NCBI GenBank assembly: GCA_012862575.1
Contig: BLSF01000030.1
Location: forward strand, 313,584-377,583
Source of the DNA: Parietichytrium sp. I65-24A
Lineage: Eukaryota; Sar; Bigyra; Thraustochytrida; Thraustochytriidae
DNA: 64,000 nt
Reading direction: 5' to 3'
A model generated the notes under the pieces. It saw only the letters and a list, made by a program, of their open reading frames with translations, did not search any database and was not told the origin of the DNA. The stretch's first letter is position 1, and each line of letters starts with the position of its first letter. Made by a program: the position numbers and the translations under genes. This document shows, in pieces, positions 31 to 54,755 of the stretch.

Positions 31-2033
31 GGATAAAGAAAGAATTCAAGTTTTACTTCTTCATGATGGGAGAAATAGGCACCGCTGAGCAATTCGAGTA
101 CAACAAGTAGAGTTTCGATTCCGAGCACGACGCCAGCGAATTTGGACGGGTAGAGCTGGTTTTCTCACACCCGTCACAAAGTCAAGGCGTCTTTAACCAC
201 CTTACTTTTTTCGCTTGCGCCTTTGTCCAGACGATCTCTCCGAGAACTTGGTACTTGCGGACGACTCGTATTTTGAGGTCTCCCGTTCTCTACAGCAAGC
301 GTTGTTTGCCCAGCACCTTTTTTTTTTTTTTGCTTGTACTTTTGCCCGGCGCTGGTGCACTGACTGTGAGGAATCAAGCGCGACTGTTTCTCTTCCACCG
401 TTTCTGCTGTGGCCTGTGGTGTATTGGTGCATACTGCACTCAAAGCCTGCCACAAAGGGAGAACGAACACCTGCCTAGAGTGAGGAGCAGAGAAGAGAAA
501 CAGACCAAGAAATAAACCGCCGCTGGCTGGCTGGCTCACTGTCTAACCCGGGCCAGACACATCCTGATGCATAAGTTACTACCGCCGAAAGTATAGTAGT
601 CCCCAGACTTGTTCCGACACGCATATCCTGTTCGGCCAGCGAGTAGCTTCCTATTGCGGACCATTCCACAAACCGTTCAGTGTGCTCGGTGTGGTGTGAT
701 CAGTGTGACCTGCCTGCCATCTTGCCTGTTCGATCCTGGTTCGACCCTGAGATCCTCCAGTCCTTGGAGAAACAACGCCGGCCGCAGGCGCCAAAGTCTT
801 GCAAGCGAGGAATTCACCTGGCGCAGATTTGCTCGCAATCGGACAAAGTAAAAGCGGTGCAGAAGGCAGAGATCATCACCGCTGCGCGAGGTAAGTCAAC
901 ATTTGAGCGGGACTGGGAGAGGGGGATGGTGGGTGGGTGGGTGGGGGGTTGTTTCCAGTTATTCGACCAGCACGGCGCACATTCGTGAGAGATCGGCATC
1001 AGGCTCTTCATCTCCAGAACAGCTCAGCAGCAGCATGGCCGCTGGGACTGTTGTCAGTCCATGCGACTCCAACGTCGCTATGTCGGCAAAAGGGAACCAA
1101 TTCATAGGCGCGGACCCGCGAAGCTCACGGATTTAATTGGGGGAGAAGAAGGAGCAGGAGTTGTGCTTGAGCTTTTTGCGACTCGCACGCGAATCCGCGG
1201 AAAGGGATCCCAACCGGAAAACTGTTTGCCACATTTGTCGCACACCCGAACGTACCAGCATTAGATCGTTTAAGAGGCAAGTTGGCGCGGATCATGGTGG
1301 TGGTGGCAGCACGCGAATGTTGAGAGAATCAAGTGACACATTCTGTAGTACACTGTAGTTGCCAACCAGTTGCCCAGCCTGGAGCAAACGGAGCTTTCAG
1401 TGTCAGTCAATTCTCCACCGCTTTTCTCCCTCTGTCTCGGATGGCACTTTCCTGTCTCACAGATCCACACACCGAGCCCATTCGCAGTCAATTGACCATT
1501 CCACTCGAGCATTCGAGCATTCGGGAACGGTGTGTACGCCAATTGTACCCATTGGGTTTACCGAAAGTGAAAATGCACTCAAGCGATTGCATCGCGTGCC
1601 AAACCAAGATAGCTCTAGAGCTTTACTCTTTGAGTAGCTTCGCTTGCGACTCGGTTGTTCTTGCCAAACTTACGACTAGCCAACAGGGCGGGGCGACAAG
1701 AGGGGTGTGCCCTTACTGCGGTCGCACCTGGAGCGACTCGGCATAGTGCTCACTCCTGTAGTGCTCCCGCCCCCACTTTCTCTTCGCGCCACAAGACCAA
1801 CTCAGCCTCAATTTTCCATCATCAGCAGCGACGTGTGGCACAGGTGGCAGTGGGAGTGCTCTTGGCTGTCGTGAGTCTTGCCGTCGACAAAAGTTAGATT
1901 GTCTCTGTGACTTTTGTCTCATCTTTTCCACCCTCAACATTCGTTTAGTGGCTAGCTTCTGGAAGTACAATTCTCGGCACGCGACAGGGGAAGAAGACTG
2001 AGTGATCGATTGGCGCAGCGCAAACACACACAA

Positions 2034-2053
2034 TCTCTCTCTCTCTCTCTCTC
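2034..2053. repeat. (CT)n microsatellite
   Basis: Uninterrupted CT dinucleotide run of about ten units. A GA/GT-rich stretch follows at about 2270-2310. Confidence 0.9.
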
Positions 2054-2186
2054 GCGATTCTTCTTTGTCTTCTCTCAGGCACCAACCAACGCACACGCAA
2101 CTTGCTCGTCCGCTTGACATTTATTTCCTTTGACTCGAGATGGAAGCAAAGATTTCAACAATCAACAAGAGGCGAGTGCCGATTTC

Positions 2187-2235
2187 ATTGCTCATTGCTC
2201 ATTGCTCATTGCTCATTGCTCATTGCCCATTGCTC
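2187..2235. repeat. Heptanucleotide tandem repeat (ATTGCTC)n
   Basis: Seven consecutive 7-bp units, the sixth with one substitution (ATTGCCC). A clean minisatellite-like array in non-coding DNA. Confidence 0.93.
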
Positions 2236-3503
2236 GGTGGGTCGACTGACTGCGACAGCTCACAGTTCGTAGAGAGAGAGTGTGTGAGTGAGAGAGAGAG
2301 TGAGTGAGCGTTCGTTGGTACTTTTGCCCGCGTTCAAGTTGTGGAGCCTCCGGAATCGCGCAAGAATTTGTGTTCCTTCCTCCCTTTCCCTCTCCCACTC
2401 TACGCCTCTTTGGCCGGAGTGAGGAGACTGACTAAACTTTTAGTGTCGGAAGAGCGTCGGAAGAGTCACTTTTACACCGCTGCCACGCACGACTCTCCTA
2501 GCGAACGCAGTGACTGACTGCAGTCTCACTCGCTCACACACGCATTCTCTAGAAATCACTTTAGTCTCGCGTGGGAGGATGTGCGCAATACTCAGTAGTG
2601 GTATAGTGCGAAAGTGGAAATAAGTGCAAGGTGGAAAGTAAGCGCCACAGGTAGCCCGTTCCGAAACTTGGCTGCTACGCGCGTGCCCTAAATGCCGCGT
2701 AGTACCCCAGCTCGCAAGGTCCGCCAATTGCGTGCGAATCCGTGGATCGGCTAGGTCAGGTCGTCCGTTGTTGTTAGATCGCTCACTGCTCTTGCTCTGC
2801 TGGATGCCAACGAGCGCTGCTGCAACAACAAAGGACCTTTGGCACGGCGACCTGGGTGTCGGAAGGCAGCCAGCTTACTCGTTCCGTGCCTTTTTTTCAG
2901 TGCTGTTTTGTACTTGCGCTGGACCATTTACAAATTTGCAAACCAATACAACTTGGTGCCAATTCTGCAAATGTGGATTTGCCGCTCTGGGCACGCCCGG
3001 CCAGCTTGGCCTGATGGGACTTGCGTGGCTATGCATACCGAGAGACACAGGGGGATTCCAGCTCTGGTTTGGGCGCTGCCGAGAGAGGGGAAGAAACTGG
3101 GTCGCATGTGGCAAGTGTGACTGAAGAACCTCTTTCTCTCTCTCATTCTCTCACACATATGTATTCCCACCAGTGCCGAAAGTGCAATCGATTTTCACCA
3201 ACAAAGAAGGGTGTGCGCCGCAAGTTTTGCCACTTTGTCAAAGCACACTTTAGCCTATCTGAGCCTTACGGTCATCTAGCCCTAGAGCGCTTTAGTTCCC
3301 GGCTCCTCTCTTACTGTCAGACTAAGGAGACGCGGTAGCGTCGGAAGGAGGAGGGTGGAGGTAGGAGTAGCTAAAGAGTGAGCAGAGAGAGTCGCTTCGC
3401 CCCCTCGACGTCGAGGTGCTAGCGTAAGAAGTAGTATGTGGTAGAGGATGACGCGGGTAAAGATGGGCGAGCACTCGGCGCACATTTTGTGCGGAGGAGA
3501 GAT

Positions 3504-3528
3504 GATTGATTGATTGATTGATTGATTT
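3504..3528. repeat. (GATT)n microsatellite
   Basis: About six tandem GATT units. A similar shorter GATT run lies at about 5585-5610. Confidence 0.9.
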
Positions 3529-5716
3529 CTCAATCTTGAAATCAAAAGATCAAAATAAAGAGAGGAAAGCGAAAAGACAAACAAGAATTTTGTCTGAGGC
3601 GTAGCTTTTGGATCGCTGGTCGCACTGGCGCAGCTTACTGGTTCTCGAGTAGAAAAAGAGAGAGAGAGGGAGGGAGGGAGGAGTTGTTGTGTGGTCCTGA
3701 CAGTACAGTATCGAACAAAGTCGAATGCAACTGAGAGACTAACTTGCAGTGAACCAAAGTGACGTCTCCATCTGACCTCAGTAAACCGCGCGGTATACCC
3801 GCTACTACTTTCCATAGGATCTGTGTGGAAATCGAGCTGCTGAAAGAGCTCCTATCGCCTGCTATCGAAGCTGCATAAGAGTATTTGAGGAGGGCTGTAC
3901 ATTCAGTAAGTGCCAGGAGAAGACGTAGGGAAAGACGTAGGCTGAGTCAGGAAAAATTGTGTGAGTGAGAGGATTGATTGCAGTGAATTTCACTTCTGTG
4001 AAAACAAACTCTACCAATACTCCCTCTATCTCTTCCCTATACTCTCCATGCTCCCCTTTCTTTCTTTCCTTTTCTTCTATGTGTCTGTCTTTTTTTTTGT
4101 GCGATGCAATGCAATGGAATCCGTGACACTAACAAAATCATAAAATCGCGCTCTCTCTCTTTTATCTCCCTCTTGTTTACGACGAACCGAATTCAGTCGT
4201 CGCCGATTTGTGGTTCGGCAAGGGCCTGCCTCCTTCTAACATTTGCTATCACAAAGGCTAATCACTCGGTAAGTGCACGATGAAAAAAGAGGCTTGGTCA
4301 GGACTCTCCATCTTTTCCACTCTCCGCCACCTTTACCATTTCACCTGAGTGCTGGCTACCATAAGCACCGCCTCTCTCTCTCTTTTCCCTCTCTCTCTTT
4401 CTCTCTCCGTTTGTGAGTTTGGCTGGCCCGACCCTCTGTGTATCCCTCTGTCTTTTGCATTGCACAAAGGCCAATGTACAATGTACACTGCAATTCTCGC
4501 CTAGCGAGCTGGGTAGGACGAGACAGCGAGGCATGAACCGGGAGAGCGAAACTTGCACTTTAGAAATCTTGTTGACGTTGATCGTGGCTATCGTGGCTAT
4601 CGTGGCACACAAACAGACCAGACAAGATGGAGAAATGGAGAAACAGAGAAAGAGAGAGTGGACAAGCTCTCGCTTTCCGACGCTTGAGAGCCCTGAGACA
4701 GCACGCATTAACTTTAAAGAAAGGATGGAAAGGATGGAGGGGAGGAGGGAGGGCGATGGAAGTACAGGACATGTGACAGCAAGACGTTCGAGAGACTAAC
4801 TAGCAGGAGGCTATTGCCCGGGCTACTTGGGTAATGAAACGCAGATTGAGAAGATTTGGGACGGCTGGTCAGGGCAACCACCGGAAGGAGTGTTCAGAAC
4901 AAGTAATTAGTGGAGAATCCACCTGGTAGAAAAAGTCAGAACAGGAAAAAAGGCAGGAGAAGAAGGTAGGAAACCCTCGTTCTTCCTCCTCCTCCTCCTT
5001 CCCCCTCCGCACGCGTATCACTGCAGTGGCAGTACTCAGTCAGTACTAGTGCTGTACCGCAGCAGTTCCTCTTCTCCAGAGAGAGAGGGAGAGAGAGTAA
5101 GTTGGAGAGAGATTGGAACGGGGAGAGGGAAGGGGAAAGGAGGAAAAGAGCAAGAGAGCAGAAAAAGAAAAGCAAAGTCACACTCACGGCGAGAAAGACC
5201 GCCAAAAGCAAGAAAAGCAAAAGGACTTGAGCCAGATCGCTCGGCTAGGGCTTATCTACCTCCGACAATAGCTTGAGCCGTAGGTTTTCTGCCCTGATTT
5301 CGTCAATCTTGTGTCTGCAGTTTGTTTCCTTCCTCTCTTTCGCTCCTTTCGATAGATAGACTGAGAGACAGACAGACAAACGATCGTTTATCCACCTCCC
5401 CTCACTGCGCATTCATCGAGCAAAACAATCTCACTCCAGTGTGAGTTAGTGAGCCACTGAGTCAGTGAGAGGAGGAAAAGAAAGAAAGGAAGGAAGGATA
5501 GAAGGCACAGTCTTTCCCCGTTAGACATTGTTGCACTTGCTCTTTTCCTCCGGAAGGAGAAAAGAAGAAAAGAGAAGAAGAGAATTGATTGATTGATTCA
5601 TTGATTGATCGCTCACTGACCTGGTCACACTTTGTTGTCGCTGCATTCTTCGAAACACAGAACGAAAGCAGAGAAAGGAGAGAAGGAAAGAGCATCGTTT
5701 GCTCGATCAAGACTCC

Positions 5717-5742
5717 ATTCGTTCATTCATTCATTCATTCAT
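5717..5742. repeat. (ATTC)n microsatellite
   Basis: About six tandem ATTC units, about 0.7 kb upstream of the Myb start codon. Confidence 0.9.
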
Positions 5743-6407
5743 CGCGCCCATCCTTCGCGCGGTTGGCGTTGGCAGCGCGAGGCTGCAGCAGTCTTGTGCG
5801 TGCCGAGCGGTGCGTGACGCGTGGACTGGCTCCCGGTAGGTGGAAGAGTGGAAGAGTGGGAGAGCGCAGTTGATTGATTCAGCGGAGATAGGCGGTCCAG
5901 GCAGTCCGGCCAGTTTGGGATCGCTGAGATTGGTGTGTTGTTGGGAGCGATTGTGTGTCATTTGAGATTCGAAACCTGAGCTCGGAAGCCGGGATTTGCA
6001 GTGTCAAGTCGGCCGATTGCGATCTAGACGGAAGGAAGGAAGACTGATCGATCGATCCATCGATCGCTTGCTTGGTTGCGATTGCTTGGTTGGTTGGTTA
6101 TTAGAAGAAGGAGAAAAAACTGGAACAAAAAGTCCGAGCCAGTGCTGCTGAACTTGACAACAGCCGGGACGCCCTCCGAGCCACGTATTTCTTTCTGGTT
6201 GGAGGCCTCCAGCTCTTTGGAACGGCTGTGGTGGCCTGATTGGGTCTCTGTGGCGTTTGTGTTTTTTGTGTTGGAGGAGCCTTCGTGTCTGTGCGACTTT
6301 GTGCAAACGGGAAGCGCATCGGTGGTGCCGTTAAAGCGCGCGTCGCCGCTCGACACCTTTTCACAAACATTTACACTTTATTGTCACAAAGCGCAAAGCC
6401 AGGAAGA

Positions 6408-8159
6408 ATGGTGCTTCAAGACGGAAATAGCAGGGGCTCTCTTGCCGATCTCATCCTCGCGGCGAGCTCCACCGCCATGGCGCAGCAGCGCCATGCATCT
6501 GGCGCGAACAGCGCTAGCAACCAAGACGAAAACAGCACTCGACAGGCGAACTCCATGCCAATCAGCCGCCCGGCGCAGAAGGACTGCGGCAAGTTCACCA
6601 AGAGCGACAACCTCTCCGAGCGATCCTTCTCCAAGTCGAGCGAGGACGAGAAGGATGATGGCAATCTGAACGAAGGCGACTTGCAAGCAGACCCCTCCAG
6701 GCGCAAGGGCGCTTGGTCGCACAAGGAAGACGAGCTTCTCAAAAGTGTGCTAAAAATCCTCTCCATTCAGGACGATGCCCACTACTCAAAGTGGAGCACA
6801 GTGTCTTCGTACATCCCGGGACGGTCTGCCAAGCAATGCCGTGAGAGGTGGTGCTACAACCTTGACCCGACCATTTCCAAGGCGCCCTGGTCTAAAGAGG
6901 AGGATGACGTGCTCCTAGCGAGCCACCGGGTGTTGGGCAATCGTTGGGCTCAGATTGCGTCGCAACTTCCTGGTCGAACGGAAAACTCGGTCAAGACCCG
7001 CTTCAAATCTATTATTCGCGCCAAAAAGCGCGAGTGGACTCCAGAGGAGGACGAGGTCATTCTCAGCATGCAAAGAAGAGTGGGGTGCAAGTGGGATCTC
7101 ATCTCTTCGCAGCTCGAGAATCGCACCAAAAACGCAGTGAAGACCCGCTACAGACAGCTCTTTCGAGCATCTCGCTGGGTTGGCGCCGACGCAGAGAGCG
7201 AGACCGAGGAGGCTGCGGGAGATGCCGAAAAACAATCCAAAGATAGATCGCTGTCCAAGGCAAATGCCGATGCGCACAGACGTCTCAGTGAGACGAGCAC
7301 CATCAGCAGCGTGAGCACTACAGGGTTCTCTCCGTCTATTGTTTTTCCGCACAACGGCCACGGCAAGTCGGACTTCGACAAGGAGTCCTCCCATTCGATG
7401 AGCCGCGACATGCCGCCCCTCAAGCACCTACCTAGCATCCGTGAGCCCTCTGGTCTTGAGGAGCTTGACAAGAAACGACGCCGCGAAAGTGCCTTCTCGG
7501 CCCCAGACCTAGCAACCGATCGCGGAAACAAGCGACCAATGGTTGACATGGGCCCCACCCACATCAAGAGGGAAACTTCGTCGAGCTCCATTCCTTCCCT
7601 GTCTCCAAACCTCCTGTCGAGTCTCAACGGCATCGACCCTTCACAACTGGCAGCTGTCGCTTCGTCCATTGGCGGGTGCTCTCCAAACTCAAACGCTTCT
7701 CCGACTGCTTTCACCAGGGATTCCGAGATTTGGGCAGGAAACAGCGCAGGCGCACAGCGCTTGGCTTCCAGTGGGGCCGGAAACAGCAGCAACACCAACA
7801 ACATGCTTGCATCGCTTGCCGCTGCACTTGAACATAATGGCAATGCAGCACAGCAAAAGTTGCTTCAAGGTGGCAACGCCGACCCGATTCTCAATCTCCT
7901 GGTTGCCCAGTACGTCAAACAAATGCAGGAGCGCCAAAATCAAAACTTGCTCGCTTCTCAGCTTGCCGCCCTCCTCGCAGGGAACCACAAGCCAGCTATG
8001 CAGCAACAAGACCACATGTCGCAGTTGCTGGAGGTGCTCTCTCGCCAGAGTGGCAACAACAGCAGCAATTCTGATTATGCTCACAACAGCAGCAGCAACT
8101 CCAAGATAAACAGGCTTTGCTCTGGCGTCTTGCTTGTGGAGACTCACTTAGTCGGTTAA
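6408..8159 (+). CDS. R1R2R3 Myb-type transcription factor
   Basis: Predicted nuclear DNA-binding protein of 583 residues. The ATG at 6408 is the first in frame. Three Myb/SANT repeats are adjacent at about residues 97-152, 153-203 and 204-255. Each has the spaced tryptophans or a W-like residue and the closing helix (for example GRTENSVKTRFKSI and NRTKNAVKTRYRQL), as in animal c-Myb and plant or protist 3R-Myb proteins. Repeat 1 has a small insertion between its first two helices. The remaining 330 residues are Ser/Asn/Gln-rich and probably act in activation or interaction. 3R-Myb proteins commonly control cell-cycle genes; that role here is inference. No intron is evident. The C-terminus may be wrong: another frame opens at about 8075 and continues a Ser/Gln-rich tail to a TAA at 8243-8245, suggesting one missing base in the CAG-rich stretch. 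Confidence 0.93.
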   Translation: MVLQDGNSRGSLADLILAASSTAMAQQRHASGANSASNQDENSTRQANSMPISRPAQKDCGKFTKSDNLSERSFSKSSEDEKDDGNLNEGDLQADPSRRKGAWSHKEDELLKSVLKILSIQDDAHYSKWSTVSSYIPGRSAKQCRERWCYNLDPTISKAPWSKEEDDVLLASHRVLGNRWAQIASQLPGRTENSVKTRFKSIIRAKKREWTPEEDEVILSMQRRVGCKWDLISSQLENRTKNAVKTRYRQLFRASRWVGADAESETEEAAGDAEKQSKDRSLSKANADAHRRLSETSTISSVSTTGFSPSIVFPHNGHGKSDFDKESSHSMSRDMPPLKHLPSIREPSGLEELDKKRRRESAFSAPDLATDRGNKRPMVDMGPTHIKRETSSSSIPSLSPNLLSSLNGIDPSQLAAVASSIGGCSPNSNASPTAFTRDSEIWAGNSAGAQRLASSGAGNSSNTNNMLASLAAALEHNGNAAQQKLLQGGNADPILNLLVAQYVKQMQERQNQNLLASQLAALLAGNHKPAMQQQDHMSQLLEVLSRQSGNNSSNSDYAHNSSSNSKINRLCSGVLLVETHLVG

Positions 8160-10286
8160 ACTCCAGTAGCAGCAGCAGCAGTGTGCCAAACCTGGACAGC
8201 TTGCTGTCTTCATTGGGAATGCAACAGCAGCAGCTTCCAAAGTAAATGACCAAACCTGCGTGACGTGAACATGTGGCGAGCGAACGATCGTTTCGCTCCC
8301 AACTGTGAAGATGATGACCCCAGCCCTTTCCTTTTGTTCTTTTGTTTCGTTTTGTTGAATGAAAACAGCACCTACTTTCGTGCTTTGTCAAACACCGTAA
8401 TCGCCACCCGCGCCCTTGCTTCTTTTTTTAGTCATATTTTAATTATATTGTTCGAAGGCGTTCGGGCTGGCACATGGTACAACGCCATAAATTAACAAAG
8501 CACCAATTTTTGATTTCTTGCCACTTTTGATCTGTGCCTTTCTTGCCACCGAGCGAGTTTCTTCTTCGCCCCCAGTTTCTTCGTCAGCTTCGAACAAATG
8601 CGATGGGACCGACAAAAGTTGAACAAACGTCAACTCACACCCTCGGAATTTTCTACTATCTGTAGCCAGCAGCATGTCGACTGCAGCAAGCGAGCGCGAC
8701 CTCGGGATTTGCAGCGGGTTGCGCCATTTGGCCCAAGTACTAGTACACAGCTCCCTTCACGCGCCGAGAAAAGCGAGCGGAAAGGATTTGTTCTGAGCGA
8801 AATTGACACATGCCGTCCGGTATGTCTCAGGCTTCAGCTTGTTCAACTTGACAACAAGTTCCCTAGCGCATTTGCTCACTCACTCACTCCGCACTTCTCT
8901 CGCAGCAAATGAATAAAGCATTCCATTCTCACGTTCTCACTTTCTCACTGTGAATGCTTTGACCGACTTGTGTGAATGAGTGAGCGATTGAAGACATGCA
9001 CTTTTTTTCTCCAGATCCCAAACTCCAAACTCCAAATTCAGACACAGACTCAAACTGTTTTCGAAGAAGCAAATATAAGCAAATGGGCAACAAACCTTGT
9101 CTCCGATATCAGAAACGCAAGCGGCGCCCAGCAGCTGCGGGGGACCGCGGAGAGAAGATCGATCGGAGGGGGGCTCTAAAGTCAAAGTCAAAGTCAAAAT
9201 CAAAATATTAATAAATCAAACGAAAAGAAAGCGAGACGAATCGCAGTTTTTTACCCAAACTCTTTCCGCCATCGCCAACTCGACTCGCCACAATGCTTCT
9301 CCGATTCCTACAGCACATCTATCAGCCACTCTAGTCTTCCGTGTTCATCAGATCCACTCAGCTGAGGTGTTGCCGCTAGCACTATCTAAGTACTGGCTAG
9401 AGCAAGAACGTCTTGCAAGCCCACATGAGCCTAGCCTAGCCATCCCTACCGCAAACGCTAGCCCTCGCTTGCCTTCCTCAGGCACCAGAGACATGCACTG
9501 ATACCTTCCCTTCTACCGCCACCACTAAGACAAACTCCACTGCTAGGGCCAAACACTAGAACCCAAACAAAGACACAATCTACTAGCTCCGTCTACTACC
9601 AAGCGCCGGTAGGAGACAGCAAGAGTGGCACCTCTAGCACCCCTACGCAAAACAGCTACGAAATCCCACCTCCTTATAGTCGTGATAGCGCGTCCTACCA
9701 CTTCGAGAGAGTAGCGCCGGGTAGAGCGGGGTAGAGCAGCGTCGTAAGGATAAGTCCGTAGCAGCGGAGTGGCGTGGCGTAGTGGCGCGTAGTGTGTCGT
9801 AAGGGGACGTAAGGCTACACATTTGGTTGTTGTTTGCTTCTGTGCTGGGTTGGTTTCGAAGAAGGAAAGAAAGAAAGAAAAGAAAGAATGACAGAAAGAC
9901 AGAAAGAAAGCCAAAGCGCCGAACAGAGAGAAAGAGAAAGAGAGAGAGAGAGAGAGAGAGTGTGTGTGTGAGTGTGAGTGAGAGAGAGATAGAGAGAGGG
10001 ACAGCGGCCACAGAGGGAGAGGGCGAGGGCGAGCAAATCTCATCTCCTCACAAGAACCCGCCCGCGATCCCTTGCAGCTTGTGAGTGCCAGCGCGGCGCG
10101 AAATTGCGGTGCGCAACAGGTTTGCGGACCCAAGCGCTGCGAAGCACGGGACGCCGGCGCCCCACAGCTTGCGCGGCACAGCTTTCGTGCGTTTAATTCA
10201 AGACCCCGCGGACTCGCGGACTCGCGGACTTGCCGACTGGCCAAGCGAGTGAGTTTGTTTGTTCGAGTGAGTTTGAGTGAGTCAAG
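8160..10286. other. Intergenic region, Myb to PHD gene
   Basis: No convincing gene. It holds the Myb 3' flank, a hexamer run of AAAGTC-type units at about 9178-9206, a near-palindrome AAGTACTAGTACAC at about 8736-8749 and a GA/GT microsatellite at 9938-9970. Open frames here are low in complexity. Confidence 0.6.
9938..9970. repeat. (AG)n-(TG)n compound microsatellite
   Basis: A run of about eleven AG units passes directly into TG units, about 320 bp upstream of the PHD gene start. It is one of several GA-rich tracts lying in 5' flanks in this window. Confidence 0.9.
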
Positions 10287-42800: not shown

Positions 42801-43323
42801 GGCATCCACCCACACTTTGAGTCCCAAATTTTCCAGTCGGTTGGCGATGGAAACGACTTTGCTGTGGTTGATGCTGTCTTTACCCCAGTCATGTGATAGA
42901 AAAACATCCCAGACCTGGTCGTCTTTGTACTCGACGTGCGATGCGAGACGTGAGGCCATCTCGCTGGCAACTTTAGACTCCGCGCCGGCGGAGGTTGCAT
43001 CAATGTACAGCGACTCTCCGAGCTCCATCTTGAGACGTGGTGTCCAAGCCGCCTGATTCCTCATCCCCGCACTCAAGACAACCGGCACCATCCACTGCAT
43101 GCCCTTTTCTTGCACTGCGAGATCAAACTCACGCAAGCAGGCCTTATTCCTGTTTGAGCCCCCGCCGCCGACGCTCTGGTTGTACTCTTCGTCCACAAGC
43201 ACGAACACCATGTCTGCGGCGGTGATAGTGTCTGCCTTCAATCTGGTCAGAGACTTGCGCCCGCCATCGGCAGCCTCGTTGAACGTAGATGAGGCAGACA
43301 CAGTCAGGCCGTGCTTCTCCTCG
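39803..43323 (-). CDS. TIR-TIR-NACHT-WD40 STAND protein, copy A (lacks N-terminus, frameshifted)
   Basis: Carries the complete C-terminus but stops at the assembly N at 43324, so it lacks about the first 30 codons. It also has an extra C at 42671 relative to copy B. That base breaks the frame inside the second TIR domain, splitting the reading into 43323-42648 and 42682-39803. Downstream it encodes the NACHT ATPase (GGPGVGKSTLAAELARRGG, ILVIFDALDECEEES), a helical region and the whole WD40 block at about 40620-39990, with five near-identical 40-residue repeats. The last repeats and a 70-residue tail exist only in this copy. It is best read as the 3' part of one gene whose 5' part is copy B: the spliced-together length (about 1201 codons) stays in frame. 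Alternatively it is a decaying tandem paralogue. Confidence 0.85.
40141..40620 (-). repeat. Near-identical 120-bp repeats encoding WD40 units
   Basis: The same segment (ending in CACTCCACACGCGCACCGT on the + strand) recurs at exactly 120-bp spacing at 40141, 40261, 40381 and 40501, so each unit is 40 codons. Units differ mainly in codons for the residues after GH and around SxD. A fifth, more divergent unit lies at about 40020-40140. Confidence 0.95.
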
Positions 43324-46240: not shown

Positions 46241-46326
46241 AGCAATTTGCGAAGCACTTTCGCGATATCGCTGGAGGCGTTGCCGTGCGACAGGAACACA
46301 ATTGGCCGGCTCTTTTGATTGCTCAT
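43325..46326 (-). CDS. TIR-TIR-NACHT-WD40 STAND protein, copy B (5' part, intact frame)
   Basis: The ATG is at 46326 (MSNQKSRPIVFLSHGN). The first TIR-like domain spans about residues 8-150 and contains NRNKACLREFDLAVQEKG. A second TIR spans about 160-300, with VWDVFLSHDWGKDS, GLKVWVDAREN and RANDNCLREFNGSV. In TIR NADases the glutamate of the C-x-x-E motif is catalytic; both domains keep CLREF. A NACHT/STAND ATPase follows, with Walker A GGPGVGKST at about 392 and Walker B ILVIFDALDE at about 545. Helices follow, then WD40 repeats from about residue 932, cut off by the N at 43324. STAND proteins of this order act as ligand-triggered innate sensors or cell-death switches in bacteria, fungi and animals; that role here is inference. 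Copy A supplies the missing C-terminus. Confidence 0.9.
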
Positions 46327-46472
46327 TTTTCTTTATCTCGCTCTTTATTTCTTCCCTCTCACAGCTCTTGCTCTCCTCTCTCCTCTCTCCTTCCCGTACT
46401 TGCTTGCCTTCCGCGTTCCTCTGCTGACCCGACCCTTCGCAATTCGGGTTTGAAGACTGCCCATGGTATGTG

Positions 46473-47491: not shown

Positions 47492-50400
47492 CTATCGCGT
47501 CCTACGCTTTTTCCCACCAGAAGACCCATTCGAAACACCCCCACGCTTCTTTTGGTGGCTACTGTTTTTGCTTGCTACGCTCGCGCTCTCGTCCAGCACT
47601 AGCTGCTTGGCGCGAGACGCGGCTGCCTTGTCCATCACATCGTATTCGTCGTCGTCCTTCTCAAGTGGCCAAGGCTCTGGGCTGAACTGGTCAGTGTCGA
47701 CTAACAAGGTATTCTTGACTTGAACGTGTTTCTGCGCATCAAATCTCTCCGGGATTGCGACCGCCATCTCGTTGTTGTCAGTCAAGTCACAATCCTCAAG
47801 ATTTAACTTGGCGCGCACTTTGAGTGTCTCGCAAGGGATCACGGAGATGGCATTTGTGTTGCCAAAGATGACGCACCTCCTTGCACTGACAGATCCAACA
47901 CCTACGGTGATCCCATCTCTCCCATTAAGGCAGATATCGCAAGCCAGCAAAGATAACATCCCGCGACGAAGCTCTATGCCAGACTCTGGCGAACCTGATA
48001 CTTGACATCTCGTGAGCATGCAAAGCGCTCGCGGACCGCTCACGACCAGAGCTGTGCTATGTCCGTAGAGCTGGCTGATTGTGCAATCGTCCATCCAAAC
48101 ATGGGCGTTCTCCCCTACCAAGACACCGTCTTCGATGCGACCATCCCTTGGAGGCGGCTCTGCGTGGAGCATTGGCCTAAAAACGCAGATTCCTCGGAAA
48201 ATGGCCTCGCTCGAACCTTCAAAGTGCAAACCGTGCCCGTGGCACTCAACTCCTGTGGCTTGCGAATATGACCAGAGTGTGTGCTTTTGCTCGTCTTTTC
48301 TTTCGGCAGCCACCGCGGGAGACCTTGCGCGAATGCCAAACGAACACAAGTCTTCCTCCAGCTTGCGCTGCACATGCCGATCGGTGAGATGATCCTTTTC
48401 GCTGGATTCAATTCCAATCACTTCTACGGGCGGAGGAGGAGTCGGCTTTTGTGCATTGGCTGGTGCTTTGGAGATCCCGGATTGTTTCACATGCACGTTC
48501 AGCGGCCCTGTTGGACCGCCTGCGTCGTACTCGCCAGCGATGGAAGTCCGAACAAACGCCTTGGCGCCACGAATTTCTGCCAGAGCTTGCTCGCCGATGA
48601 TCATCACGTCTTGCCGGATCTTGGCCGACTCCACCTTGTGGATGCCGGCGCGGAGCACAATAACTTCACCTGGCTGAGCAATCTCCAACGCTTCGCTCAA
48701 AGTCGCGACTCTCCGCGGATCAGGCGGCCGGGGACCACAGCCAATGAGGCTAGCGTAGTATTTGTTAAATACTCCATACGGTGGCGACCCATCAGCTGGA
48801 GAAACGTAGTTGTACCTGCCGCCCGAATCCACACGCAGCATAGACCTGCGAAGGCCGTCCTCCACAAATCCATCCGTGTAGGTGACCTGGTAAGTCCCGT
48901 CCTGATGCACGTCAGAGATCATGCAAGGATACCAAACTTCACCGTCAGCGTACAACGCCTCCACCCACGTTCCAATAGACATCCAGTCGTCGTGAAACTT
49001 GGGAGCACGGTGATTGATGCATTGGCGGTGGTATGGATCGGTCGCGTTACTCACCCAGAGATACATTTCTGGGCGAAGAGATGCGATATGCCAACGTTTG
49101 CAAACTGCACCCCACCGCACCCTTTCCGTTGGCGAATCTGCAAACTGAAAAATTCGGATCAAAATATTATTGTGGAGGGCAGTCCAAGTATGCCTCCTCA
49201 TGACTCGAAGGTTTTCGATTCCTCGAAAGACATTGGGCTTGGTCCAGGTCGACTCTCCGCTCTCGCGATTCCAGTAATAGCGCCTATTCTCGCGACTCAG
49301 GTGAGTTTCCCACGCAGAGCAGGTTAGCAGCTTGAGAATTTTGGCGCTTTGGATAGCGCTCCGAGCAGCAAGGTACTGTGTTACATCGAATTTGTTGCCA
49401 TCGGTGGCCATGATCAGCTCCTCTTCACCTTCCTCTTCCATTAACAGCTTTTCTTCCTCGATGCGATCCATTTCCCAGGACTCCTGCTGAGCCCGCTCCA
49501 TTTCCAACAGCTCCATCTCCGCCTGCAGAGTATTGACTATTGGATACCAATACGTTCTGAAAACGATCGAGTACCTCTCCACAGGTCTCAGCTGGCTCTC
49601 AATCTCCTGAAACTGATCCTGGGTTAAAGCAGCGCTTGCGGGATCCACTTCGGTAGAATTTGGGTCAGTGCTCTCCACAGCCTCTTCAGTCGGCGCTGGG
49701 GTCCCTCCGTTTACGGAAGAAGCGGCATCAGATTGCGTCTTCTTAGATGACTTGGACTTCTTCTTCTTCTTCTTGGAACTCGCAGCAGTGGTTTGAGACA
49801 CGACCGACGGAGTCGGAGAGTCACTGCGCGGAGGGACAAGGTCCGCTTCGTCAAATTCGTGAGCATCCTCGTCAACCTCGTCTTGCGCTCGTTTCGCAGC
49901 AAGCTTATCGGACTCGTCTTCTACTGAAGCCATGGCTGCTTCTATCTCGTGCGCAGACAGGGCCGGGCCGGACCCAGGCTTGCTCCCCGATCCATCCTCT
50001 TGCACCCCTAGGAGCTCAGAGAGCTGGCCGCCAGAACTCAGGAAAGAGCTTACTGTAAACTTTCCATCTTCGACTGAAAGCTTGTTCAGCTCTCTCTTTT
50101 GATTCGCTTTGCTAAGAATGTTTTCCTCGATCGTGTGTTCACTCACAAGGCGATATATGTGGACATCACGAGTCTGGCCGATTCGGTGTGCTCGATCTTG
50201 AGCTTGGGCGTCCATGCTTGGGTTCCAATCAGAATCGTAAAAGATGACGGTGTCTGCACCTGTCAAGTTGATTCCAAGACCACCACTCCTCGTGCTCAAA
50301 ATGAACGCAAATATTTTCGTGTCGCGGTTAAATTTCTCCATCATTCGTTGACGGTCCTCCACTTTAGTCGCGCCATCCAGCCGAAAGTACACGTGCCCAT

Positions 50401-53400
50401 GGATGTTGAGAAAGATCTCTAAGATGTCCAACATTCGAGTCATTTGCGTGAATATAAGTACGCGATGCCCGCCCAACTTCAAGTCTCGGAGCATATTTGC
50501 CAAAACCTGAAGTTTTCCACAGTCATACTGAACAAGCATCTTATCTGGGAACGAAATGGACAGACGCACTGATGCCTGGTGAAATATGCTCGCGCTCATC
50601 AATCTTTTCTCATCGTAAGACCGAATTGAAGTTGCGGCTCGGTCCTCTAACTCGGTATGATTGCTAATCTCTTGCAGCGTGTCGCCGGCATCTATCCCAG
50701 CTGTGCCAATCATATCCAACACTGGTGTCGGAGCTCGCGCTCTGGGGGTAATGAACGCAAATCGCTCCAAGACCGGAGTAATCGAAGCCACACGCTCCGC
50801 AAGTGTAGGCACGAGATTTTCTAGCACATGGCTGGACTCTGGAGTCCATCTGAGATGTCCGCACTTTCTCCATTGCGCAACAAAGCACTCATTGTATGCA
50901 CCAGCAACTCGGCAACTACCCACCGTAACTGCATCACGAAGATCAATGCCATAAAGTGGCGAAAATCGGCTCAAGTTGTGGCCACGAGCAACGATGTTCT
51001 CCAATCGAGCGCCCACAGTGGCTTCAAGCTCAGCCCTCAAGCGTTTCCGTTCCGCGTCCAACACGGCCCGGGCTTCACTTCCGAGATTGCTATCGTCAAA
51101 AGTCTTGAACTGCTTGAATTCGTCACCGGAAAACTCCACAGATTGCAACACTTGAACAAACTGCTGCCTCAGAGGCGTCAAATCATGCAAACGCTTTGCA
51201 TCCGATTTTGTTGGCACAACGCCAGGGTAGTCCCCGACTTCGCGGCTTGCAAAACCGAATTCACCGCCAATGTCAAGCTCCAAGCCGGCTAGTGGCTCTC
51301 TCCCGCAGAAGGAGCGATAGTGCCGCCTACGCACTCTGAACGAGAGCGCCGCGGTCGCGAGTTTTATAGGATCCATGTTGAAGGGCGACTCAATGACCCG
51401 AGGCTCGAAAATATCCGGATGGTTACAAACCATTCGGAGTTTCATCAGAATGGACATCATTCCGAGGTAACCACCGCTTGTGAGTGCCTGGCGAGTAGAG
51501 CTTCGGGAAATGAAGTCCTCGTATAAATATTTCTGCCGACGCGAGAGTGGGACACGGACAATATGCTCGTATTTTCCCGGTAGCTGCGTGGCAACGTCGA
51601 TTTTCAGGCGTCTCAAAAGAAAAGGGCGCATCACAGTATGCAGACGTTTGATAATTGCAGCATGATGGCGATCTTGCTCTTGTCGAGCGATTGCTGCCTG
51701 AGCAGCGCTCACTTTACCCTTTCCTTCGACAACAGCGTTGAGGGGGTTGGAAAACCAATATTTGAATTCGCTTTGCGAGCGGAAAATATGCGGCATCAAA
51801 AAGTGCATGAGTGACCACAATTCCATCAGAGAATTTTGCAGAGGCGTACCGGTGAGCAAAAGACGGCGCTTGGTGTTGAAGTTTAAAAGCGTTTGCCAGC
51901 GTTGCGACCGGAAATTCTTGATATTGTGAGCTTCGTCAAGAATCATGTAGTACCACTTTTTGCGCTTAAGAATGTTGGCGTCCTGCACTGCAAGCTGGTA
52001 AGACGTGATGCACGCGTGGAAAGAGTTTGGCCGCGTCCAGCCAGTGCGCTTTAGTTTGCGCTCCTTTGCGGACCCGTAGTAGGTCAACACCTTGAATCCA
52101 GGGCAGAACTTTTTAAACTCCATTTCCCAGTTCAGCAACACACTCGTTGGAACTATAATCAAATGCGGCCCCCAGATGCCCCTTTCGCTAGCGAGGTGCG
52201 CGAGAAGTGTGATAGTCTGCAAAGTTTTACCTAGTCCCATCTCATCTGCCAGAATGCCATTGAGATGACGGTCCCACATTGAGACAAGCCAATCAAGTCC
52301 AGCGCGCTGATATTCTCTGAGAGTGATTTCCTTGGAAATGAGAAACGGCACTTGGTTCTGCGGGGCGCCGACCTGAAGTCCGGAGGGATTTGCTGAGGGT
52401 TTGGCCTCTTCGGTGACTTGGTCCACTTCTTCCATCTCCTCGCCGCCATCCTCATGTTTCACGGAGTCCTCGGTTTCCATTTTCACATCGTCATCGTCTT
52501 CATCGTCGTCGCTGGATTCGGTTTGTACACTTGCATGATCGAGCTCGCTTCCGCTATTCGAGAAATCGTCTCCTCTTTCACTCGCCATCTGGCGATACTT
52601 TGCTATGAGCTCTTCTTGTGACATTTCCGCCTCTCGCTTCAGAGTGTCCAGCTCATCCTGCACCTGATCTGGGGCCGTTTCATCGGCAACATCAATGGTG
52701 TCTTCGTTGTCTTCCTCTTCCTCCCCATCCCACTCCAGATCGCTGGCCTCAGAACCAGAGTCTTCTTCAACAGCACCGCGAAGAGAAGATCTTTTGTCAC
52801 GACTGGGCCTTGGCATGCTTTTTTTGTTCTTTTTGGACGGCTTGTCACCGTCACGAGATCCGTTCTCGATATCGTCATTGCCGTCCTCGTCAACTTCGTT
52901 GCATTCTTCGTGCTTTTCCTGCATACCCGTGTAGAGCTTGAGGAGTTCTTCACGGCTCATTTCTGCCTCTTGCTTCAAAGTCGCGAGCTCAGCGTCGACA
53001 TCTTCGGGCCTGGTTTCATCTTCTTCATCCATGCCAGCTTCGTCGTCTTCGCTCAACTCCTTAACATCCCATTCGTCATCCTGTGCATCGTCATCGTCAT
53101 CTTCCTCGCCGTCTTTGCTGTTTCCAGATGCATCGGAGCTCGCCGCCTCGGCATCTTCTTCGCCATCGCTTTGGTCCTCATGCGCATCCATATTTGCATA
53201 CATTGCAAGGAGCTCTTCGCGAGACATTTCGGCCTCGCGCTTCAGGGCATCAAGCTCATTTTGAACTTCTTCTGGCTTCGTTTCGTCCTGCTGCTCGATG
53301 GTGTTTTCGTCGTCGAGGCCATCACTCGCGGCTTCCCACTCATCGTCGTCTTCTCGGTCTGCAACTTCTTTGGACAAAGAACCGAGCATCGATTTCCTTC

Positions 53401-54433
53401 CGCGCAAAGCCCTCTTTTCGTCCCCCGACTCCGTCTCGTTCATTTCTTCCTTTATGCTCACCTCGTTTCCTGGTGACGAGGGCCCCATGTCTTCGTTTAG
53501 ACCGTACAAGCGCATCAACTCCTCGCGGGACATTTCTGCCTCTTGCTTTAACCCATTTAGCTCGTCGTCGACGTCTTCAGGCTTGGTTTCGCAATCCTGA
53601 TCCATGGTCTCCTCGTCATCGACCTCCTCCTGTCCCTCCCAATCAATGTCTTCTTCGCTATCTAGATCGCTATCTTCTCCGCGAGAGCCACTGCTTGTTT
53701 CATCGCGCTTGGCACGCTTCACGGGCCTCCGCTCCAGTAATTCTTGTTCCGAGCCGTCATCGGGTTCACTATCTTTATCCGCGATTTCATTTTCTAGCTC
53801 TGCAGCAAAACTATCCTTTGCGCCGCCGCTATCTTTGGGATCGTTTTGTACCTCTTCATTCGACTCAGCCTCGTTTTGGGTGTCCATGATGGCGCCAATC
53901 TTCTTTGCCCCCGCGGCAACTTCTTGGCCTTTCAGCTTGTTCGCAAGAAGATTCGAATAGCGCTCCGTCTGACTCACAAGATAGTTCAAGTGTTTATCCA
54001 TCGCCGCTTGCTGTTTGGCTTGAAACTCCGTCTTGTGCTTGTACACGACAACTCGATCAATCTTCTCCCAGAACGATCGCACCTCGCGAGCCATTCGAGT
54101 ACAAATCTTTCTCGCTGTCTGCCGAAGCAGTTTGGAGTTTTGCATGTCTCTATTAAACATCTTCTCTCTACCGCGCAGCGCGGACTTGCCGATCCGTTTT
54201 TGCTGCTGTTCTTTCCATTTTGCTTCGCTTTTAAAATCCTTCGACATCCATTCCATCTCCTTCAGCAAATATTCCCAATGCGCAGTTCCTTCTCGAACAT
54301 CGTCTTGCGGCCGCCCGATGCGAGCATTCAGCACTGCCCCGCCCAAGGCAGCCAACCGCTCTGACAATCGAGCTTTCTCCTCCAGCAAGCTCTGTTTCGT
54401 GGCGCCATCATCGCCGAGATCCACCGTCTCCAT
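47492..54433 (-). CDS. SWR1/SRCAP-type chromatin remodelling ATPase fused to WW, F-box, Tudor-like and beta-helix segments
   Basis: Uninterrupted 2313-codon frame; first ATG at 54433. An HSA domain (about 53-125, HWEYLLKEMEWMSKDF) precedes an acidic region with four copies of a motif ending EAEMSREELLxxY (about 280-318, 375-416, 465-505, 573-614). The SNF2 ATPase starts at about 700: GILADEMGLGKTLQTITLLA, ILDEAHNIKNF, LLTGTPLQNSLMELWSLMHF. A long insertion typical of the INO80/SWR1 class follows, then the helicase C lobe at about 1308-1450 (RSGGLGINLTGADTVI, AQDRAHRIGQTRDV). SWR1 exchanges H2A for H2A.Z. Unusually, the frame continues through a WW domain (about 1706-1733), an F-box (about 1748-1795), a Tudor/agenet-like segment (about 1816-1866) and a right-handed beta-helix (about 1905-2245), ending in a basic tail. 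F-box plus beta-helix resembles FBXO11-type ubiquitin ligase adaptors. I know of no such fusion. Confidence 0.93.
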   Translation of the reverse strand: METVDLGDDGATKQSLLEEKARLSERLAALGGAVLNARIGRPQDDVREGTAHWEYLLKEMEWMSKDFKSEAKWKEQQQKRIGKSALRGREKMFNRDMQNSKLLRQTARKICTRMAREVRSFWEKIDRVVVYKHKTEFQAKQQAAMDKHLNYLVSQTERYSNLLANKLKGQEVAAGAKKIGAIMDTQNEAESNEEVQNDPKDSGGAKDSFAAELENEIADKDSEPDDGSEQELLERRPVKRAKRDETSSGSRGEDSDLDSEEDIDWEGQEEVDDEETMDQDCETKPEDVDDELNGLKQEAEMSREELMRLYGLNEDMGPSSPGNEVSIKEEMNETESGDEKRALRGRKSMLGSLSKEVADREDDDEWEAASDGLDDENTIEQQDETKPEEVQNELDALKREAEMSREELLAMYANMDAHEDQSDGEEDAEAASSDASGNSKDGEEDDDDDAQDDEWDVKELSEDDEAGMDEEDETRPEDVDAELATLKQEAEMSREELLKLYTGMQEKHEECNEVDEDGNDDIENGSRDGDKPSKKNKKSMPRPSRDKRSSLRGAVEEDSGSEASDLEWDGEEEEDNEDTIDVADETAPDQVQDELDTLKREAEMSQEELIAKYRQMASERGDDFSNSGSELDHASVQTESSDDDEDDDDVKMETEDSVKHEDGGEEMEEVDQVTEEAKPSANPSGLQVGAPQNQVPFLISKEITLREYQRAGLDWLVSMWDRHLNGILADEMGLGKTLQTITLLAHLASERGIWGPHLIIVPTSVLLNWEMEFKKFCPGFKVLTYYGSAKERKLKRTGWTRPNSFHACITSYQLAVQDANILKRKKWYYMILDEAHNIKNFRSQRWQTLLNFNTKRRLLLTGTPLQNSLMELWSLMHFLMPHIFRSQSEFKYWFSNPLNAVVEGKGKVSAAQAAIARQEQDRHHAAIIKRLHTVMRPFLLRRLKIDVATQLPGKYEHIVRVPLSRRQKYLYEDFISRSSTRQALTSGGYLGMMSILMKLRMVCNHPDIFEPRVIESPFNMDPIKLATAALSFRVRRRHYRSFCGREPLAGLELDIGGEFGFASREVGDYPGVVPTKSDAKRLHDLTPLRQQFVQVLQSVEFSGDEFKQFKTFDDSNLGSEARAVLDAERKRLRAELEATVGARLENIVARGHNLSRFSPLYGIDLRDAVTVGSCRVAGAYNECFVAQWRKCGHLRWTPESSHVLENLVPTLAERVASITPVLERFAFITPRARAPTPVLDMIGTAGIDAGDTLQEISNHTELEDRAATSIRSYDEKRLMSASIFHQASVRLSISFPDKMLVQYDCGKLQVLANMLRDLKLGGHRVLIFTQMTRMLDILEIFLNIHGHVYFRLDGATKVEDRQRMMEKFNRDTKIFAFILSTRSGGLGINLTGADTVIFYDSDWNPSMDAQAQDRAHRIGQTRDVHIYRLVSEHTIEENILSKANQKRELNKLSVEDGKFTVSSFLSSGGQLSELLGVQEDGSGSKPGSGPALSAHEIEAAMASVEDESDKLAAKRAQDEVDEDAHEFDEADLVPPRSDSPTPSVVSQTTAASSKKKKKKSKSSKKTQSDAASSVNGGTPAPTEEAVESTDPNSTEVDPASAALTQDQFQEIESQLRPVERYSIVFRTYWYPIVNTLQAEMELLEMERAQQESWEMDRIEEEKLLMEEEGEEELIMATDGNKFDVTQYLAARSAIQSAKILKLLTCSAWETHLSRENRRYYWNRESGESTWTKPNVFRGIENLRVMRRHTWTALHNNILIRIFQFADSPTERVRWGAVCKRWHIASLRPEMYLWVSNATDPYHRQCINHRAPKFHDDWMSIGTWVEALYADGEVWYPCMISDVHQDGTYQVTYTDGFVEDGLRRSMLRVDSGGRYNYVSPADGSPPYGVFNKYYASLIGCGPRPPDPRRVATLSEALEIAQPGEVIVLRAGIHKVESAKIRQDVMIIGEQALAEIRGAKAFVRTSIAGEYDAGGPTGPLNVHVKQSGISKAPANAQKPTPPPPVEVIGIESSEKDHLTDRHVQRKLEEDLCSFGIRARSPAVAAERKDEQKHTLWSYSQATGVECHGHGLHFEGSSEAIFRGICVFRPMLHAEPPPRDGRIEDGVLVGENAHVWMDDCTISQLYGHSTALVVSGPRALCMLTRCQVSGSPESGIELRRGMLSLLACDICLNGRDGITVGVGSVSARRCVIFGNTNAISVIPCETLKVRAKLNLEDCDLTDNNEMAVAIPERFDAQKHVQVKNTLLVDTDQFSPEPWPLEKDDDEYDVMDKAAASRAKQLVLDESASVASKNSSHQKKRGGVSNGSSGGKKRRTR

Positions 54434-54755
54434 CTGCGGAGCTACAAGGTCCTCCCTCTTCCCTTCTGCCAACGTTCACAATTGCAGCAGCCCTTTCGTA
54501 TTGATCCTCGTCGATATAAACCTGGCACTTTGGCACTCTGGAAACTCGACACACGCTTCCCGTGTCCTTTAATAAAACAGCAACCACGCTCCAAAACGCC
54601 TCAGAGCCTCCAAGCTCGCCCTCACAAGTGCAGATTGAAACTTGTCCTTGATACTGACACCTGACACCACGCATGCAAAGTCTCCCTGCCCGCTGCCAAC
54701 TTCTGCCAATAATAGCACGCGACCCGACCAGCTAAGATCCGACCTGATCCGATCC

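What the first reader, a model, noticed from the sequence alone, without database searches (positions are those of the whole stretch)
47492..49320. SWR1-type remodeller fused to a WW / F-box / Tudor-like / beta-helix tail
A single stop-free frame links a full INO80-class SWR1 ATPase to an F-box plus right-handed beta-helix, the FBXO11-like ubiquitin ligase plan, with WW and Tudor-like modules between. It suggests a remodeller that could itself recruit SCF to chromatin, for example to turn over histones or H2A.Z-bound proteins. I know of no described protein with this architecture.
Basis: partly seen in the sequence, partly recalled or inferred. Interest (0 to 1): 0.85.

Follow-up and report, generated by a model that had tools for sequence, protein, structure and literature searches.

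The report
SWR1 remodeller with built-in F-box tail
In one eukaryotic microbe, the motor protein that normally swaps a histone variant into chromatin is read in a single unbroken gene with a tail that looks like the targeting part of a ubiquitin ligase, which would tie chromatin remodelling to protein tagging in one molecule if the tail works as it looks.

Summary
One minus-strand frame (47492-54433, Met + 2312 residues) has no internal stop. It joins an SWR1/SRCAP-class ATPase (HSA, split SNF2 motor with a ~300-residue insert) to WW, F-box-like, Tudor/Agenet-like and right-handed beta-helix stretches. By sequence the motor is SWR1, not INO80 (SRCAP 845 bits, yeast Swr1 702, INO80 at most 459). 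The significant SRCAP match ends 171 residues before the WW domain. The F-box and beta-helix pass Pfam cut-offs when the tail is scanned alone and fall just below them in the whole protein. Tudor/Agenet stays below its cut-off. The F-box lacks the usual LP proline. The genome also encodes an H2A.Z-type histone, a YL1/Swc2 candidate, Skp1, cullins and Rbx1-type RINGs. Best reading: a SWR1 remodeller that is also an F-box (SCF-type) adaptor. Skp1 binding, ligase activity and substrates are inferred. The FBXO11-like plan is only partly met. SNF2 proteins with an F-box are already reported in soybean (SHPRH subfamily), so this is a new variant of a known kind. No eukaryotic relative was available, so it may be a clade trait or unique to this genome.

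The parts
47492..54433 (-). Single open frame, Met + 2312 residues, SWR1-class ATPase with WW / F-box / Tudor-like / beta-helix tail
54179..54289 (-). HSA domain (residues 48-84)
   Evidence: Pfam PF07529; also found by the genome search
52555..53590 (-). Four copies of an ETxPEDVxxELxxLKxEAEMSxEELLxxY motif (starting near residues 281, 383, 472, 584) within an acidic linker
   Evidence: human SRCAP shows similar EGELxxEELL stretches in the alignments printed
51413..52312 (-). SNF2 ATPase lobe 1 (707-1006)
   Evidence: Pfam PF00176
50513..51415 (-). About 300-residue insert between the lobes, as in INO80/SWR1-class motors (class rule recalled)
   Evidence: distance between Pfam matches
50177..50515 (-). 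Helicase_C lobe 2 (1306-1418)
   Evidence: Pfam PF00271
49421..49624 (-). Possible SWR1 C-terminal motif (residues 1603-1670, QLRPVERYSIVF...; SRCAP QLTPIERYAMKF...)
   Evidence: collinear but not significant by itself (-2.9 bits); no match when searched alone
49235..49315 (-). WW domain (1706-1732)
   Evidence: Pfam PF00397 above cut-off; PDB match to pre-mRNA-processing factor 40 homolog A, 2.7e-6
49055..49168 (-). F-box-like (1755-1792), LP proline replaced by H
   Evidence: Pfam PF12937; comparison with other F-boxes of the genome
48863..48979 (-). Tudor/Agenet-like stretch (1818-1856), below cut-off
   Evidence: Pfam; partial matches to several long frames in the same genome
48557..48700 (-). 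Possible first turns of the beta-helix (NosD-like, residues 1911-1958), weak
   Evidence: NCBIfam TIGR04247, E 0.0084, 14.7 bits against a cut-off of 300
47753..48133 (-). Right-handed beta-helix (2100-2226)
   Evidence: Pfam PF13229

Best explanation
This is a SWR1/SRCAP ATPase, probably the genome's only intact one, with an F-box adaptor tail added at its C-terminus by gene fusion. Shown by sequence: one open frame, an SWR1-class motor, WW and F-box-like domains, a beta-helix. Inferred: the F-box docks Skp1 and a Cul1-type cullin, so that an SCF ligase sits on the remodeller at H2A.Z sites. The beta-helix, as in FBXO11 (recalled), and the WW and Tudor-like modules pick or position the client. 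Likely clients are the evicted H2A-H2B dimer, misplaced H2A.Z, or proline-rich or methylated chromatin proteins at promoters. The four EAEM-EELL motifs in the acidic linker are probably an enlarged version of the family's H2A.Z-H2B handling region.
For: Motor: SRCAP 1e-252 and 845 bits, yeast Swr1 702, p400 484, INO80 at most 459. The stretch from lobe 2 onward matches SRCAP and Swr1 at 294 bits, and INO80 at most at 185. F-box and beta-helix above Pfam cut-offs when the tail is scanned alone. Skp1 4.4e-27; five cullin matches; Rbx1-type RING profile, best 1.1e-23 of 32 matches. SWR1 partners: a YL1 match (57.5 bits) and a histone that reads as H2A.Z by eye. Analogues: the F-box and helicase domains of S. 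pombe Fbh1 have indispensable, distinct roles and SCF assembly is needed for its nuclear localisation (PMC2294136, abstract); the human FBXL10-RNF68-RNF2 ligase is recruited to DNA lesions, and loss of its H2A mono-ubiquitylation inhibits H2A.Z incorporation (PMC6037479, abstract).
Against: No binding, expression or structure evidence. The F-box lacks the LP proline, and its profile match starts at position 7 of 47. In the whole-protein scan the F-box and beta-helix are just under cut-off. The AlphaFold2 models, made without an alignment, were poor (tail pLDDT 33.7; F-box piece 52.1), so no structure comparison was made. The beta-helix showed no clear hydrophobic period. PDB sequence search of the tail matched WW domains, with no F-box or beta-helix chain among the 38 sequences at E<=1. 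No relative of the tail was found in viral or prokaryote contigs, which is expected for a eukaryotic gene, so conservation is untested.
Confidence: 0.5

Rival explanations
1. The fusion is real but the tail is a chromatin-reading and docking module without ligase function: the F-box remnant is structural, and the WW, Tudor-like and beta-helix parts target SWR1, taking the place of the SANT domain or other C-terminal readers of relatives.
For: LP proline missing; Tudor-like and WW modules are typical readers and dockers (recalled); SANT/Myb is not among the listed Pfam matches here but is present in the decayed paralogue L017.
Against: The core F-box pattern (ILIRIF ... VCKRWH ... LW) is kept, and F-box plus beta-helix in one chain is the FBXO10/11 plan (recalled).
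Confidence: 0.37
2. Two neighbouring genes, or an assembly error, read as one frame.
For: No transcript data; a single assembly of one genome.
Against: No stop or frameshift over 2327 codons. The significant SRCAP match ends at residue 1534, 171 codons (513 bases) before the WW domain; the collinear but by itself non-significant PVERY match would leave about 105 bases. Third-position GC stays 0.51-0.65 throughout.
Confidence: 0.06
3. The F-box serves self-control: the remodeller brings SCF to its own complex or to H2A.Z chaperones to limit SWR1 dose, without acting on histones in chromatin.
For: Auto-degradation is common among F-box adaptors (recalled); no test here distinguishes it.
Against: No direct evidence either way.
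Confidence: 0.07

Closest known systems
SWR1 / SRCAP / PIE1 ATPases
   Same: HSA, split SNF2 motor with a long insert, post-helicase match
   Different: No SRCAP or Swr1 match was listed for the tail at E<=1; the WW / F-box / Tudor-like / beta-helix tail is extra
Soybean GmCHR36 and GmCHR11 (SNF2 proteins with an F-box)
   Same: F-box and SNF2 motor in one protein, proposed E3 link (PMC10138738, passages)
   Different: SHPRH subfamily of the Rad5/16-like group, not SWR1; no beta-helix or WW mentioned in the passages seen
FBXO11 / FBXO10 (F-box + beta-helix; recalled)
   Same: F-box followed by right-handed beta-helix
   Different: No zf-UBR match listed here; WW and Tudor-like stretches; attached to a remodeller; LP proline absent
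FBH1 (F-box DNA helicase)
   Same: DNA helicase that forms an SCF through its own F-box (PMC2294136, abstract)
   Different: Different helicase family (UvrD-like, recalled) and a role in recombination
KDM2A/KDM2B (FBXL11/FBXL10) and Toxoplasma FBXO13
   Same: Chromatin-type enzyme with an F-box in the same chain (KDM2: recalled, with the listing of PMC7000146; FBXO13 with JmjC: PMC11570480, passages); the FBXL10 ligase affects H2A/H2A.Z exchange (PMC6037479, abstract)
   Different: JmjC enzymes, not remodellers
Rad5 / Rad16 / HLTF / SHPRH
   Same: SNF2 motor with a built-in ubiquitin-ligase part (recalled)
   Different: RING, not F-box; repair group

Membership tests
SWR1/SRCAP ATPase | HSA domain before the motor | tested here: met
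   PF07529 1.9e-8, residues 48-84
SWR1/SRCAP ATPase | SNF2 motor split by a long insert | tested here: met
   about 300 residues between the SNF2 and Helicase_C matches
SWR1/SRCAP ATPase | closer to SWR1/SRCAP than to INO80 and other SNF2 groups | tested here: met
   845 and 702 bits against at most 484 (p400) and 459 (INO80); 294 against at most 185 for residues 1290-1700
SWR1/SRCAP ATPase | partners H2A.Z and YL1 in the same genome | tested here: met
   L043 reads as H2A.Z by eye; one YL1 match of 57.5 bits; other subunits not searched
SWR1/SRCAP ATPase | H2A.Z-H2B binding region next to lobe 1 | tested here: inconclusive
   four acidic EAEM-EELL motifs; no PDB match for that region alone at E<=1
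F-box protein | F-box profile match | tested here: met
   above cut-off when the tail or the F-box piece is scanned (24.7 and 28.9 against 24.3); below it, 23.4, in the whole protein
F-box protein | LP motif that contacts Skp1 (recalled) | tested here: not met
   L-H here; 11 of 16 other F-boxes read from the genome have P, placed by eye
F-box protein | Skp1 binding | not testable with these tools
   only the presence of Skp1, cullins and Rbx1-type RINGs was tested
FBXO11/FBXO10 | F-box followed by right-handed beta-helix | tested here: met
FBXO11/FBXO10 | C-terminal UBR-type zinc finger (recalled) | tested here: not met
   not among the 7 families listed for the 642-residue tail at E<=10; HMMER filters drop most matches above about 0.1

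The most novel reading that the evidence does not exclude
A histone-exchange motor that carries its own SCF adaptor, so that removal of H2A-H2B (or misplaced H2A.Z-H2B) and its ubiquitylation happen on one enzyme in one cycle, with a fourfold dimer-handling linker feeding the exchange.
Probability: 0.2. Interest if true: 0.85.

Novelty: new variant of a known kind. Interest (0 to 1): 0.58.

Why it matters
F-boxes fused to chromatin or DNA enzymes are known (KDM2, FBH1, plant SHPRH-type SNF2 proteins), but my searches listed no SWR1-class remodeller with one. If the tail works, it would give a single-chain system in which to test whether ubiquitylation drives or follows H2A/H2A.Z exchange, a link that the FBXL10 work suggests in human cells (PMC6037479, abstract).

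Tried and rejected
Paralogue search with the tail (41 matches): one is the window itself. The other 40 are partial and none reaches the beta-helix; the furthest ends at query residue 286 of 642. Most lie in the Tudor-like stretch. Two touch the F-box stretch: C19:42295 (query 22-118, 24 percent, E 0.0017), which by eye is a multi-WW/IQ-like protein (L015), and C22:557199 (99-218, 25 percent, E 0.044; L016); neither was scanned with Pfam. So no stand-alone donor gene was found in G000, though the search is exon by exon and can miss. The beta-helix family search of G000 (4 matches) did not list the window's own beta-helix, so it cannot show absence elsewhere. Relatives in viral and prokaryote contigs: none confirmed (2 and 19 pattern matches). 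AlphaFold2 without an alignment: poor, so no fold search was run. Hydrophobicity autocorrelation of residues 2096-2230 gave no clear period (highest z 1.96 at lag 24, lowest -2.35 at lag 18, lags 18-29). Sigma-70 promoter and terminator scan of 49200-50200: none found, but it does not apply to a eukaryote. INO80 identity rejected by score. Phmmer of residues 1451-1700, 244-700 and 1590-1700 alone gave no relevant PDB match. I recalled an Arabidopsis SNF2/F-box annotation for At3g54460; the passages seen in PMC522872 do not say so, and I do not rely on it. Passages of PMC2408969 and PMC7047200 gave nothing used here.

A 42.5 Mb gene-dense genome would fit a labyrinthulomycete or other stramenopile; that is a guess from recall.

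Full report
What is there. The minus-strand frame 47492-54475 is open for 2327 codons. From the first ATG at 54433 it encodes Met plus the 2312 residues kept as P0001 (numbers below are those of P0001). Pfam finds HSA (48-84), SNF2 (707-1006), Helicase_C (1306-1418), WW (1706-1732), F-box-like (1755-1792), Agenet (1820-1856) and Beta_helix (2100-2226). In the whole-protein scan WW is above its cut-off, F-box-like and Beta_helix lie just below (23.4 against 24.3; 25.3 against 25.9) and Agenet well below. With the tail or its pieces alone, F-box-like (24.7-28.9) and Beta_helix (28.4-30.1) pass; Tudor_5 (at best 24.3 against 31) and Agenet (at best 23.7 against 27) do not. A weak NosD match (E 0.0084, far below its cut-off) covers residues 1911-1958, where the beta-helix might begin. 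From base composition a 612-codon tail without a stop has a chance of about 2e-12, and the other five frames reach at most 351 codons.

The motor is SWR1. Against solved structures P0001 gives SRCAP 845 bits, yeast Swr1 702, p400 484 and INO80 at most 459. Residues 1290-1700 give 294 bits for SRCAP and for Swr1, and at most 185 for INO80. In G000, SNF2-family lobe 1 gives 30 matches, some of them pieces of one gene. I read the frames at 14 of the 29 places outside the window. The HSA family search of G000 gives two matches, the window gene and L017, and the motor of L017 is decayed. Among the places read, the window gene is thus the only intact HSA-SNF2 gene; 15 places were not read, and the HSA search can miss weak matches.

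The join. The significant SRCAP match ends at residue 1534. A further collinear match (residues 1603-1670, QLRPVERYSIVF against SRCAP QLTPIERYAMKF) is not significant by itself (-2.9 bits), and the stretch searched alone found nothing relevant. The WW domain starts at 1706. A second gene would need its promoter and the first gene's end inside 513 bases, or about 105 bases if the second match is accepted, all without a stop in this frame. Third-position GC is even, 0.51-0.65, in blocks of 150 codons. I take the fusion as real in this assembly; a transcript would settle it.

The tail. No full-length relative was found in G000: of 41 matches one is the window itself and the other 40 are partial, mostly to the Tudor-like stretch; none reaches the beta-helix. 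Against PDB sequences the tail lists WW domains and chance-level matches, no F-box or beta-helix chain (38 sequences at E<=1). The F-box core ILIRIFQFADSPTERVRWGAVCKRWHIASLRPEMYLW is recognisable, but the match starts at profile position 7 and LP reads LH. Of 20 F-box matches in G000 one is the window; I read 16 of the other 19 and left out the three below the cut-off. Eleven of those 16 have the proline, placed by eye. Structure models without an alignment were of too low confidence to use, and the beta-helix showed no clear hydrophobic period.

Partners. G000 has one Skp1-family match (4.4e-27), five cullin matches, four of them nearly complete, 32 matches to the Rbx1-type RING profile, best 1.1e-23, one YL1 match and three H2A-type histones, one of which (L043) reads as H2A.Z by eye. 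The parts for both SWR1 and SCF exist, which is expected for a eukaryote and does not show that they meet.

N-terminal repeats. Between HSA and the motor there are four copies of ETxPEDVxxELxxLKxEAEMSxEELLxxY, 45-55 percent identical to the first, with 17 invariant columns. SRCAP shows at least two similar EGELxxEELL stretches in the printed alignments. A region of SRCAP next to the ATPase N-lobe is described as an H2A.Z-H2B chaperone domain (PMC13426437, passages), and the Swr1-Z domain is said to recognise H2A.Z-H2B (PMC10853557, passages). That the repeats bind dimers is inference; the region alone had no PDB match at E<=1.

Literature. Searches for SWR1 or SNF2 with F-box, fusion, stramenopile, oomycete, thraustochytrid, FBXO11 or beta-helix (open-licence PMC papers only) listed no SWR1-class protein with an F-box; I saw listings and, for a few papers, passages or abstracts. 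The nearest is the soybean SNF2 survey: an F-box only in GmCHR36 and GmCHR11, SHPRH subfamily (PMC10138738, passages). Functional parallels: Fbh1 (PMC2294136, abstract), FBXL10 in H2A/H2A.Z exchange (PMC6037479, abstract), and an F-box with JmjC in Toxoplasma (PMC11570480, passages).

Verdict. Real architecture, confident SWR1 identity, probable F-box and beta-helix, doubtful Tudor, and an untested ligase role. New variant of a known kind (chromatin enzyme with an F-box), interest 0.58.

Noticed in passing
L017 (G000:C1:1135500-1144500), frame +1299..8261: 2321-codon frame with HSA, a decayed SNF2 lobe 1 (704-811; by eye the DEAH-like motif reads IWDLTADN) with no Helicase_C match listed, and a C-terminal Myb/SANT domain; closest to SRCAP and p400. 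It looks like a p400/Eaf1-type scaffold with a dead motor, a possible intermediate between p400 and Eaf1.
   Followed up: partly
L020 (G000:C15:567000-573500), frame +1842..6137: SNF2 motor with a C-terminal leucine-rich repeat region (one LRR family above cut-off), recalling a Rad16-like protein fused to a Rad7- or FBXL-like part; no F-box or RING match listed at E<=0.01.
   Followed up: partly
52555-53590, minus: Four copies of an EAEM-EELL motif in the acidic linker of the SWR1 protein; SRCAP shows at least two similar stretches.
   Followed up: partly
39803-46332, minus: Two tandem long frames, nearly identical over long stretches by eye; the one at 43144-46326 has TIR_2, an NPHP3/NACHT-type domain and WD40 repeats, an immune-receptor-like plan. 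The other was not scanned.
   Followed up: no
13593-18146 and 19688-23998, minus: Two frames of the same plan with a Laminin_G-type domain, cadherin-like repeats and a class C GPCR 7-transmembrane domain.
   Followed up: no
L023: 1489-2004 minus and 494-1123 plus: Skp1 (171 aa) beside a frame of 209 aa on the opposite strand that looks Skp1-like by eye.
   Followed up: no
L041: An H2A that ends in SSSQEY, an H2A.X-type ending (motif recalled).
   Followed up: no
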